From the NCBI GenBank assembly GCA_022827685.1, contig JAJEIH010000103.1, forward strand, positions 1 through 43,021: DNA of 43,021 nucleotides. Reading direction: 5' to 3'. Shown here piece after piece: positions 28,926 through 42,826 of this stretch. The notes below the pieces were generated by a model. It worked only from the letters and a program-made list of their open reading frames with translations. It made no database searches and was not told the origin of the DNA. Every line of letters begins with the position of its first letter. Positions within the stretch are counted from its first letter, which is position 1. Position numbers and translations under genes: made by a program. Source of the DNA: Alphaproteobacteria bacterium (GTDB taxonomy: Bacteria > Pseudomonadota > Alphaproteobacteria > Bin95).

Positions 28926-29037
28926 TCAATCTCTCTCCTCCCCCTCAATCTTTCTCCTCTCCCGCTTGCGGGGGAGGCCGGGAGGGGGCCGGCGGCCGCG
29001 CGGCCCGGCAAAGGCCCGGGAGGCTGGGAGGGGGCTG
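28926..29037. repeat. CTCCC-GCTTGCGGGGGAG intergenic repeat, left island
   Basis: The stretch holds two tries at a TCAATCT(C/T)TCTCCTC lead-in, then CTCCCGCTTGCGGGGGAGG (about 28958-28976) and a GGCCGGGAGGGGGCC tail. It continues with further G/C-rich palindromic pieces such as GGCCGCGCGGCC. The same lead-in, core and tail occur at 42311-42354 in the right island. The palindrome has no T-run after it, so it is more likely a dispersed repeat than a terminator. Confidence 0.6.
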
Positions 29038-29095
29038 TGGCGGCGGGTGCGGCAATGTGTTCATTATATGCAGGTAATATTTCTCCTTTGGAGGC

Positions 29096-29122
29096 TTGCA
29101 TTTCAGAAAACAGTGGTATGAT
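29096..29122 (+). promoter_or_regulatory. Candidate promoter of the left leader cassette
   Basis: TTGCAT (29096-29101) lies 15 bases before TATGAT (29117-29122), and the latter is preceded by TG-G, forming an extended -10 element (TGGTATGAT). The patch 29060-29122 is clearly AT-richer than its surroundings. A promoter-like pair occupies the matching place in the right-hand copy (42197-42225). The spacing of 15 is short, so the extended -10 would matter. Confidence 0.45.
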
Positions 29123-29192
29123 GGGTCCGAGGGAAGAGGCATCCGGAGCCGCTTCCCGCTCGCGCCGGCCCGGTGCGGAACGACCCCGATTC

Positions 29193-29315
29193 AGCCGACA
29201 GGCGAAGTGTGTCCTGCGTCTCGCGCGCGCAATCAGGCGCGCGAGCCGCGCCGCCGCGATACGCGCGCCCAGCCGCGCACAGGCGCGCGCGGGATACGCG
29301 CGAAACAGGGTCGCT
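29193..29315 (+). repeat. Leader repeat, left copy (possible structured RNA)
   Basis: This 123-base segment is the left copy of a repeat found in inverted orientation at 41992-42117. A 41-base stretch (29220-29260) is identical in both, and most of the rest aligns with scattered changes. The identical part contains a hairpin with nine-base arms CTCGCGCGC and GCGCGCGAG (29220-29228, 29237-29245) around the loop GCAATCAG. A second CG-rich region follows and ends in GGATACGCGCGAA-CAGGGT. It lies between the promoter-like element and the small ORF, so it would be the 5' leader of that transcript. I do not recognise it as a named RNA family. Confidence 0.65.
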
Positions 29316-29369
29316 CCGGTGCCGGGGCGGCATGGCCGTCGAACCGAAACGGAATGAAGGAGTTGCCCC

Positions 29370-29549
29370 ATGACCTTTCCCGATCCGACCCTCTCCCTCT
29401 CCACCCGCCGGGAAGCCTGCTGCCGCCACGGCACGGCATCCGGCAAGGCCGGCAGGACGGCCTCGACCGGCTCCGAAGGGCCGGCCCCTTCAACCCGCCC
29501 GGAGACGGCGGTTCCGCCCCCGACCATGACAAAACATGACATTTCATGA
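29370..29549 (+). CDS. Putative small ORF ending in MTKHDIS, left cassette
   Basis: This 59-codon frame starts at an ATG preceded by AAGGAG seven bases upstream, an excellent ribosome-binding site. The peptide begins MTFPDPTLSLSTRREACCRHG, is rich in Ser, Thr, Pro and Ala, and ends PTMTKHDIS. A different 45-codon ORF in the right cassette ends RIMTSHDIP, follows the same leader repeat at nearly the same distance, and also has a strong ribosome-binding site. The bodies of the two peptides do not align; the shared ending comes from the CATGAC repeat. No function is known. It may be a leader peptide, a small protein or a chance frame. Confidence 0.3.
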   Translation: MTFPDPTLSLSTRREACCRHGTASGKAGRTASTGSEGPAPSTRPETAVPPPTMTKHDIS

Positions 29550-29550
29550 C
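29525..29550 (+). repeat. Three CATGAC units at 10-base spacing, left cassette
   Basis: CATGAC occurs at 29525, 29535 and 29545, each separated by four variable bases (AAAA, ATTT). The array covers the last codons and stop of the small ORF. The right cassette has the same three-unit array plus a further pair. Exact 10-base phasing places each unit on the same face of the helix, as expected of a protein-binding array. Confidence 0.7.
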
Positions 29551-41741: not shown

Positions 41742-41820
41742 GTCATGGAATGTCATGGTCCGCCGCGGGCGCTGCCGGGGGTGCTGCGCGACGTGTCATG
41801 GAATGTCATGAGATGTCATG
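41742..41820 (-). repeat. Five CATGAC units in two phased groups, right cassette
   Basis: Read on the plus strand, GTCATG occurs at 41742 and 41752, then at 41795, 41805 and 41815. Within each group spacing is exactly 10 bases; the groups are 43 bases apart, measured between the start of the second unit (41752) and the third (41795). On the minus strand the three-unit group overlaps the end of the small ORF, as in the left cassette, and the two-unit group lies between it and the binding-protein gene. The only other feature in 41574-41741 is the binding-protein ribosome-binding site. Confidence 0.7.
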
Positions 41821-41933
41821 ATCCGCATGCGGGCGGTGCATACCGGGCGGCCCGTTCGGGCATAGCGCCGCCCTTGTCCGGCGGGTTGTTCCGGGTATTC
41901 CGTCCGGTTTTTTCGAAACAGCGTTCCGGGCAT
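41796..41933 (-). CDS. Putative small ORF ending in MTSHDIP, right cassette
   Basis: The 45-codon frame begins at an ATG at 41933 preceded by AAAGGAGG five bases upstream, about as strong a Shine-Dalgarno as occurs in this window. The peptide begins MPGTLFRKNRTEYPEQPAGQ, is basic (many Arg), contains one Cys, and ends RIMTSHDIP. It stands 58 bases downstream of the leader repeat; the left-cassette ORF stands 54 bases downstream of its copy. No known family is recognised. A leader peptide or a small basic protein are possible; only the last residues are shared with the left ORF. Confidence 0.35.
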   Translation of the reverse strand: MPGTLFRKNRTEYPEQPAGQGRRYARTGRPVCTARMRIMTSHDIP

Positions 41934-41991
41934 GGCTCCCTCCTTTCGAACCGTCTTCGTTCCGTTCTCCCCGCCGCCGCCCCGCCGGAGC

Positions 41992-42117
41992 AGCGGACCC
42001 TGATTCGCGCGTATCCTGCGCGGGCGCCCGCGCGCGGTTGGGCGCGCGCATCGCGGCGGCGCGGCTCGCGCGCCTGATTGCGCGCGCGAGGCGGCGGACG
42101 CACTTCTCCCGTCGGCT
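41992..42117 (-). repeat. Leader repeat, right copy (possible structured RNA)
   Basis: This is the inverted second copy of the segment at 29193-29315. It has the same hairpin arms (42065-42073 and 42082-42090, loop CTGATTGC on the plus strand), the same identical 41-base core, and the same GGATACGCGCGAA-CAGGGT end. An Arg-rich frame (ARNQAREPRRRD) is open through both copies. The stretch between this copy and the promoter-like element (42118-42196) is a more diverged version of 29123-29192. Confidence 0.65.
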
Positions 42118-42196
42118 TCTCAGGGGTTTTTTCGCGCCGGCGCGAACCGGGAAAGGGGGCGGCTCCGCGCGGACGCCGCCTCCTTGTCTCCGGCCT

Positions 42197-42225
42197 CATA
42201 TAGGCAGGAGCTTCCCGGAGAGCAA
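42197..42225 (-). promoter_or_regulatory. Candidate promoter of the right leader cassette
   Basis: Minus-strand TTGCTC (42220-42225) is followed after exactly 17 bases by TATATG (42197-42202), with a TG shortly before it. It lies next to an AT-rich patch (42226-42262) and 79 bases upstream of the leader repeat; the left copy has its -10 element 70 bases upstream of the repeat. Confidence 0.45.
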
Positions 42226-42319
42226 GGGCAATTTACGAATTATTTCTGATTTTTCGAACGAACAGCAACTCATGCCGGGGGAGCGCCGATCGGAACCTGT
42301 GCCGGCCGCCTCAATCTCT

Positions 42320-42500
42320 CTCCTCCCCCGCTTGCGGGGGAGGCCGGGTGGGGGACCGCTTTCGCGTCAGCGGAAGCGGCGGCGCACGCGCCGCCATTCG
42401 TAGGGTTCGCCGCGTTCAGCGCGGCGGAGGGCGAAACCCGGCAAAGAACCGTCACGCCGAGAGGCCTGCCCCCGGCCCCTCCCGCCAAGCGGGAGGGGAG
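42320..42500. repeat. MITE-like element with imperfect terminal inverted repeats
   Basis: The left end (42320-42354: CTCCTCCCCCGCTTGCGGGG then AGGCCGGGTGGGGG) is an imperfect inverted copy of the right end (42466-42500: CTGCCCCCGGCCCCTCCCGC then CAAGCGGGAGGGGAG). About 110 bases between them contain smaller palindromes, such as GGCGGCGCACGCGCCGCC near 42377. No ORF of note is present. A solo version of the left end lies at 28926-29037. The surrounding stretches 42263-42319 and 42501-42593 hold nothing I can name. Confidence 0.6.
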
Positions 42501-42593
42501 CACAACGGAGTACCCCGGGACACGGGTTCTGCATTGCGCTCCTCGGTATGATACCAACGGCGTCGGATTGTGACTCATGGGAGATGGCCTCAA

Positions 42594-42722
42594 CTGTCAC
42601 CCCGGCCTCCGAGCCGGGGTCCAGTGGGGCCGTGCGGCGGCCCGGGGCGGTCGCGCCTGTTCTCCCCGGCTGCGCCCGCCGGGAACGCTGTAGCTGGACC
42701 CCGGCTCGGAGGCCGGGGTGAC
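42594..42722. repeat. Palindromic element with perfect 29-base inverted ends, right copy
   Basis: Bases 42594-42622 and 42694-42722 are exact reverse complements (beginning TGTCACCCCGGCCTCC and ending in the complementary GGTGACA). Each end is itself palindromic (CCCCGGC...GCCGGGG). The 71-base middle is GC-rich and non-coding. It is the same family as 29603-29755. The perfect ends suggest recent spread or gene conversion. From 42723 to 42826 I see nothing else. Confidence 0.8.
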
Positions 42723-42826
42723 AAAAAAGAGCGCAAGCACGAGGAAAGGCGGCGGCGCCATAGAGGCGTGTGCGCTGTTTGGAACTCGTTGCTGAGCAAG
42801 GGCTTCCGGACGGGCTGGGATTTTCC

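What the first reader, a model, noticed from the sequence alone, without database searches (positions are those of the whole stretch)
29096..29550. A leader / small-ORF cassette present twice in inverted orientation
Two islands carry the same order of parts on the same strand as the next gene: promoter-like pair, roughly 125-base GC-rich repeat, strong Shine-Dalgarno, small ORF, phased CATGAC units over the stop codon. Left copy 29096-29550, right copy 42225-41742 on the minus strand. Spacings match closely: -10 to repeat 70 and 79 bases; repeat to ATG 54 and 58 bases. The two small peptides differ in body but both end MTxHDIx. Conserved spacing and separate strong ribosome-binding sites are hard to explain by a passive repeat alone. 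They suggest a transcribed unit: a leader RNA with an encoded peptide, a small-RNA family, or a small-protein family whose 5' region is the conserved part.
Basis: partly seen in the sequence, partly recalled or inferred. Interest (0 to 1): 0.78.

Follow-up and report, generated by a model that had tools for sequence, protein, structure and literature searches.

The report
Gutted copies of terminase-like repeat element
The two islands are two worn-down copies of a DNA element that has spread to dozens of places per genome in a group of uncultured, probably sponge-living bacteria; intact copies carry a gene resembling a virus DNA-packaging protein instead of a normal jumping-gene enzyme, so how it spreads is an open question.

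Summary
Both islands are real, but they are defective copies of a high-copy dispersed element: about 40 leader copies in this genome, and many in six of seven congeners. One congener (G001) and six other genomes of the family lack it. Every copy shares a chassis: AT-rich start, promoter, covarying hairpin, GC-rich leader, Shine-Dalgarno + ATG, and a terminus of CATGAC units at exact 10-bp spacing. Of 70 copies with room to judge, 67 keep SD+ATG and 67 keep the terminus. Intact copies encode either a ~325-aa protein with the DNA-binding domain of SPP1/SF6-type small terminase (class A, dN/dS ~0.3) or an unrelated ~200-aa acidic protein (class B). The left window peptide is an internally deleted class A gene; 'MTxHDIx' is simply the CATGAC repeat translated. 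A second alphaproteobacterial family carries a ~45%-identical gene with the same CATGAC terminus but no leader; leaderless promoters have a LexA-type box (10 of 10 examined). No transposase is encoded, and no Terminase_6N large terminase was found in this genome. Identity is well supported; mobility mechanism and function are inferred.

The parts
29058..29550 (+). Left copy of the dispersed element (class A type, internally deleted), from the TGTTC/AT-rich 5' region to the last CATGAC unit
   Evidence: About 40 leader copies in own genome; 5' conservation begins near TGTTC; 3' end is the CATGAC array
29058..29095 (+). AT-rich upstream region with TGTTC
   Evidence: Conserved in BLAST-selected copies; TGTTC or GGTTC in 72 of 102 upstream regions
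29096..29122 (+). Promoter-like pair TTGCAT-N15-TATGAT
   Evidence: Sequence; promoter-like pair in 58 of 70 copies
29131..29157 (+). Hairpin P1, first leader hairpin
   Evidence: Covariation on 18 distinct copies
29170..29312 (+). GC-rich leader core (genus-specific)
   Evidence: Repeats I1 and I4; leader model R1 scores 64-82 bits only in G000 and G004 of 385 genomes, all others 25 bits or less
29356..29549 (+). SD (GAAGGAG) and 59-aa ORF 29370-29549, remnant of the class A Terminase_2-like gene
   Evidence: N-terminus MTFPDPTLSLSTRREACCRH aligns with class A MTFLDPTLSLSSRQEAFCRH
29525..29550 (+). Three CATGAC units at exact 10-bp phase (3' terminus; over the stop codon)
   Evidence: Positions; co-occurrence with the element across genomes
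41742..42264 (-). Right copy of the element (derivative without a long ORF)
   Evidence: 84% match to the left leader over 122 nt; found by BLAST as G000:C83:41976-42167
42197..42225 (-). Promoter-like pair TTGCTC-N17-TATATG
   Evidence: Sequence
42153..42185 (-). Hairpin P1 of the right copy; different stem bases, still mostly paired
   Evidence: AAGGAGGCGGC/GCCGCCCCCTT
41996..42140 (-). GC-rich leader core, right copy
   Evidence: Repeats I1 and I4
41796..41947 (-). SD (AAAGGAGG) and 45-aa sORF 41933-41796
   Evidence: Same DNA in other copies but frame and length vary
41742..41820 (-). Five CATGAC units in two phased groups
   Evidence: Positions 41820/41810/41800 and 41757/41747

Best explanation
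The islands are two gutted copies of a dispersed, high-copy element. Intact copies are one-gene cassettes: promoter, structured leader with a covarying hairpin, SD, then either a small-terminase-like DNA-binding protein (class A, ~325 aa) or an unrelated acidic protein (class B, ~200 aa), ending in helically phased CATGAC repeats. Proposed working (inferred): the class A protein, whose N-terminal domain is the SPP1/SF6 small-terminase helix-turn-helix, binds the phased CATGAC array at the end of its own gene. Expression is set by LexA in the leaderless relatives and by the structured leader in this genus. Copies that lost the gene keep the leader and terminus because those are the cis-acting parts, and they spread in trans, as MITE-like derivatives do. 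Shown: architecture, copy number, genus restriction of the leader, co-occurrence of gene and repeat in two families, purifying selection on class A, hairpin covariation, LexA-type boxes in leaderless relatives, and differing occupancy of some sites between species. Not shown: transcription, binding, the enzyme that moves it, target duplications.
For: About 40 leader copies in own genome; at least 18 matches (capped) in each of six congeners, none in G001 or six other genomes of the family. Intact ORFs of 323-344 aa with Pfam Terminase_2 E 1.9e-12, PDB hits to SF6 small terminase E 3e-6 and Foldseek probability 1.00, rmsd 0.8-2.1 over about 50 residues to 4zc3/2cmp (E only 0.11). dN/dS 0.27-0.36 between species pairs. 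Class B intact ORFs 187-207 aa on the same chassis. 67 of 70 copies keep SD+ATG and 67 keep forward CATGACA. Phased CATGAC pattern: 38-180 per genome in 7 of 8 genomes of the genus, 0 in G001 and other genera, control 0; 34-51 in 6 of 7 genomes of g68 in another family that carries the ~45%-identical gene, 0 elsewhere there (protein). In all 8 g68-type loci with both, repeats are forward and downstream of the gene. Hairpin covariation. GAAC-N7-GAA[ACT] box 5' of the start in 10 of 10 leaderless homologs against 1.0% of random windows, matching the alphaproteobacterial LexA motif GTTC-N7-GTTC (PMC3323433, PMC8565304). Site S182 empty in G000, filled in G003.
Against: No transposase or recombinase is encoded, and no clean short target duplication was found: one site shows a ~75-bp duplicated gene end, and site S182 moved inside a larger composite with other inverted repeats. 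Part of the spread may therefore be hitch-hiking or recombination. SF6 small-terminase DNA-binding domains bind DNA weakly and with little sequence specificity in vitro (PMC4737164), so binding of CATGAC is a hypothesis. Class B has no helix-turn-helix match and weaker constraint (dN/dS 0.5-0.8), yet shares the chassis. RNA folding energy is not exceptional (z -1.8 left, -0.2 right).
Confidence: 0.6

Rival explanations
1. Ordinary non-autonomous repeats (MITE-like) moved by an unrelated host transposase; the terminase-like and class B genes are cargo with no role in spread.
For: Gutted copies are common (ORF lengths); S182 shows the element moving inside a composite with ATACC...GGTAT ends; the 5' end has CATGAA in 19 of 102 copies (1.6 expected), weakly resembling the reverse complement of the 3' CATGAC array.
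Against: The whole ~280-bp leader plus start codon is kept, not just short ends. Gene and CATGAC array match in presence/absence in two families. No constant inverted repeats or target duplication seen.
Confidence: 0.22
2. The leader is the functional unit: a multicopy small RNA or cis-regulatory RNA, perhaps acting as a guide as in IS110 bridge RNA; the ORFs are secondary.
For: Leader kept in front of two unrelated ORFs and in gutted copies; P1 covaries.
Against: The leader is absent from leaderless relatives that keep gene and CATGAC array; no Rfam match; no IS110-type recombinase found linked to it; folding energies ordinary; core covariation not testable.
Confidence: 0.1
3. One reading: an encoded leader peptide or small-protein family whose 5' region is the conserved part.
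For: SD and start codon in 67 of 70 copies.
Against: The left peptide is a deletion remnant of a ~325-aa gene; the right-type sORFs differ in frame and length (26-58 aa); the shared C-terminus is the CATGAC repeat in translation.
Confidence: 0.03
4. A packaging module: a solo small terminase plus a pac-like repeat that marks chromosomal DNA for packaging by a helper phage or gene transfer agent.
For: Small-terminase DNA-binding domain; in P22 and SPP1 the pac site lies within or at the small-terminase gene (PMC9611059, PMC4737164); LexA-type, prophage-like control in leaderless relatives.
Against: No Terminase_6N (PF03237) large terminase in own genome while Caulobacter and five other controls are positive (other TerL families not tested). 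Only helix-turn-helix-level matches in phages. Does not by itself explain new chromosomal insertions.
Confidence: 0.05

Closest known systems
SPP1/SF6-type phage small terminase (Terminase_2, PF03592) with its pac site
   Same: N-terminal helix-turn-helix (Pfam, PDB and fold matches); direct repeats at or next to the gene; LexA-type control in leaderless relatives, as in many prophages
   Different: Only ~60 residues match; long acidic C-terminus; no phage genes seen nearby; dozens of chromosomal copies
MITEs and other gutted transposon derivatives
   Same: High copy, intergenic, internal deletions that keep both ends, occasional composites
   Different: Intact copies encode no transposase; the kept 5' part is ~280 bp with promoter, leader and start codon; target duplication not established
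REPIN/RAYT populations
   Same: Genus-level repeat populations possibly spread in trans by one protein family
   Different: No RAYT/Y1 transposase match in the intact ORFs; units are promoter-leader-ORF cassettes, not short palindromes
Putative mobile promoters (Matus-Garcia et al.; recalled, cited within PMC8049555)
   Same: Dispersed copies of one promoter region in front of different genes
   Different: The element carries its own ORF and a defined 3' terminus
Phage-inducible chromosomal islands with their own small terminase
   Same: terS without a large terminase; SOS-type operator in leaderless relatives
   Different: No integrase, replication or capsid-hijack genes; about 1.2-1.5 kb; many copies

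Membership tests
Terminase_2 small terminase (PF03592) | Pfam profile match above gathering score | tested here: met
   Class A: 48.4 bits against cut-off 26.1, residues 11-72
Terminase_2 small terminase (PF03592) | Partner large terminase / packaging genes in the genome | tested here: inconclusive
   PF03237 absent from own genome, 6 of 14 controls positive; other TerL families not searched
Terminase_2 small terminase (PF03592) | Sequence-directed binding to a pac-like site, ring oligomer | not testable with these tools
   Phased repeats co-occur with the gene; binding needs experiment. Model confident only over the helix-turn-helix (mean pLDDT 59.8)
MITE | Terminal inverted repeats shared with an autonomous transposase element | tested here: inconclusive
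   Weak CATGAA/CATGAC resemblance of the ends; no transposase element with these ends identified
MITE | Short target-site duplication | tested here: inconclusive
   ~75-bp duplicated gene end at one site; S182 boundary belongs to a larger composite
Insertion sequence | Encodes its own transposase | tested here: not met
   Intact ORFs are Terminase_2-like or without Pfam match
Rfam small RNA or riboswitch families | Match at gathering threshold | tested here: not met
   None in window
Small-protein / leader-peptide family | Peptide conserved in frame across copies | tested here: not met
   Frames and lengths vary; left ORF is a deletion product
Phage-inducible chromosomal island | Integrase and island gene set | tested here: not met
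   Intact elements are single-gene, about 1.2-1.5 kb

The most novel reading that the evidence does not exclude
A new class of one-gene element in which a repurposed phage small terminase, binding helically phased repeats at the end of its own gene, drives or licenses its own spread and that of gene-less copies. In one bacterial genus it exchanged its SOS operator for a structured RNA leader and then multiplied.
Probability: 0.2. Interest if true: 0.88.

Novelty: new variant of a known kind. Interest (0 to 1): 0.62.

Why it matters
Dispersed elements in bacteria are expected to carry or borrow a transposase. Here the only conserved gene with a recognisable domain is a phage packaging-type DNA-binding protein, and its presence matches a 10-bp-phased repeat across two distant alphaproteobacterial families. 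If the protein binds that repeat, it would be a natural, testable case for how small terminases recognise DNA, a question the literature calls unresolved (PMC9611059), and possibly a transposase-free way of spreading. It also gives a likely reason why such symbiont genomes assemble badly: many copies sit at contig ends, and bin95, which carries the class A gene, had the smallest N50 of 37 bins in its study (PMC5649159).

Tried and rejected
Rfam: no gathering hit; low-threshold hits judged chance. Consensus folding of the full leader gave no pair with double changes; because copies were collected with a GCAATCAG pattern, invariance of that motif is partly circular and is not used as evidence. 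Leader outside the genus: best other scores 25 bits or less, judged chance in GC-rich DNA. Target duplications: two rounds of orthologous-site comparison gave occupied and empty sites but no clean short duplication; synteny is often broken at the element. LexA boxes in the leader-type copies: 19 of 75, not convincing, unlike 10 of 10 in leaderless homologs. Phage origin: only helix-turn-helix matches in phage and viral collections. Class B: no Pfam or NCBIfam hit, no relative found among the g68 loci held. Literature searches for multicopy solo small terminases found nothing matching.

Full report
WHAT WAS CHECKED. The leaders are 84% alike over 122 nt in inverted orientation. The left ORF (29370-29549) ends MTKHDIS and the right (41933-41796) ends MTSHDIP. 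CATGAC units lie at exact 10-bp spacing: 29525/29535/29545; 41820/41810/41800 and 41757/41747. Rfam has no match in the window.

A HIGH-COPY FAMILY. A BLAST of the left island against its own genome (G000, 4.3 Mb, 167 contigs) finds about 40 leader copies, with only 40 of 255 candidates scored. Many lie at contig ends, so the repeat probably breaks the assembly. Six of seven congeners have at least 18 matches each (capped); the complete congener G001 and six other genomes of the family have none. A sequence model of the leader scores 64-82 bits in G000 and G004 and 25 bits or less elsewhere among 385 genomes of the class, so the leader is genus-specific.

WHAT THE INTACT ELEMENT IS. Other copies carry the same promoter, leader and SD in front of a long gene. 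Intact class A ORFs are 323-344 aa: Terminase_2 E 1.9e-12, SF6 small terminase in the PDB E 3e-6, fold match to 4zc3/2cmp over about 50 residues. The rest of the AlphaFold model is low confidence (mean pLDDT 59.8). dN/dS is 0.27-0.36 between species pairs (0.55 within one species), so the protein is under purifying selection. A second ORF, class B (187-207 aa), sits on the same chassis in several congeners, with truncated versions in G000; it has no Pfam or NCBIfam match and weaker constraint (dN/dS 0.5-0.8). The left window ORF (MTFPDPTLSLSTRREACCRHGTASGKA...) is class A with its interior deleted; L002 is more extreme (29 aa).

HOW CONSERVED THE CHASSIS IS. Of 70 distinct copies with enough flank, 58 have a promoter-like pair, 67 SD+ATG and 67 a forward CATGACA downstream, against 10 with the reverse orientation. 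Some loci of the same genome come from two collections; identical sequences were removed. The first hairpin is 90% paired across 18 distinct copies, with 10 double-change cells against 3.1 +/- 1.3 in shuffles (0/500) and 1-4 in slid controls. Shuffles do not correct for relatedness; the slid control does. Folding energies of the window leaders are ordinary.

GENE AND REPEAT GO TOGETHER. CATGACAHHWCATGACA occurs 38-180 times per genome in the seven genomes of the genus that have the element and 0 times in G001 and the six other genomes of the family; the reversed control is 0 everywhere. A class-wide protein search found a second multicopy group in another family (f66, genus g68; 48-56% identity). 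There the same pattern occurs 34-51 times in 6 of 7 genomes and 0 times in the seventh and in four genomes of other genera. In the g68-type loci that hold both, repeats are forward and downstream of the gene (8 of 8). These genes have no GC-rich leader; a GAAC-N7-GAA[ACT] box lies 5' of the start in 10 of 10 leaderless homologs (four perfect GAAC-N7-GAAC; nine g68-type, one, L225, from G003) against 1.0% of random 60-nt windows. This is the reverse complement of the alphaproteobacterial LexA motif GTTC-N7-GTTC (PMC3323433, PMC8565304). Shared ancestry of gene plus CATGAC array, with the leader gained in one genus, is the simplest reading (inference).

WHO THE HOST IS. Named relatives are uncultured Alphaproteobacteria MAGs, including Aplysina aerophoba bin95 (class A) and Rhodospirillaceae bin65 (g68-like), both from a sponge study (PMC5649159). 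That the host of this window lives in sponges is inferred from these relatives.

HOW IT SPREADS. Not solved. Orthologous sites differ in occupancy (L023 site empty in G004; S182 empty in G000), and synteny is often broken at the element. One site has a ~75-bp duplicated gene end. S182 moved as a ~965-bp composite bounded by ATACC...GGTAT inverted ends. Terminase_6N is absent from this genome while controls ring, which lowers a resident packaging role.

VERDICT. Identity as gutted copies of a dispersed terminase-like element: about 0.95. Proposed working (class A binds the phased terminus; leader regulates; gene-less copies spread in trans): about 0.4. The stated 0.6 is for the combined explanation.

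Noticed in passing
window 42545-42600; L256:455-1420 (G003); L181, L182, L195 flanks: A different repeat family with ATACC[AC]GCGG... inverted ends; in G003 it encloses a class B derivative and the whole ~965-bp composite is absent from the G000 site.
   Followed up: partly
window 28940-29000 and 42306-42366: GC-rich palindromic repeat (CCGCTTGCGGGGGAGGCCGGG), 85% alike, flanks both islands and is also inserted inside other copies of the element.
   Followed up: no
window 42595-42624 / 42694-42723: Perfect 30-nt inverted repeat TGTCACCCCGGCCTCCGAGCCGGGGTCCAG with 69 nt between the arms; related sequence recurs next to other copies.
   Followed up: no
L225 (G003, contig JAJEAZ010000158.1): A third, leaderless terminase-like lineage inside the same genus, with a perfect GAAC-N7-GAAC box before the start.
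   Followed up: partly
L102 (G358, single-contig genome), L103 (G107), L105 (G216): Remote (30-38%) Terminase_2 homologs: five matches each in G358 and G107, one in G216, with TCCTA/TAGGA palindromes over the promoters and no CATGAC array seen.
   Followed up: no
L016 against L117: Neighbouring gene's 3' end (~75 bp) present on both sides of the inserted element in G000, single in G007; the 3' copy begins directly after the last CATGAC.
   Followed up: partly
L068, L054 (G007): Tandem arrays of two or three leaders separated by CATGAC remnants, suggesting recombination or insertion into itself.
   Followed up: no
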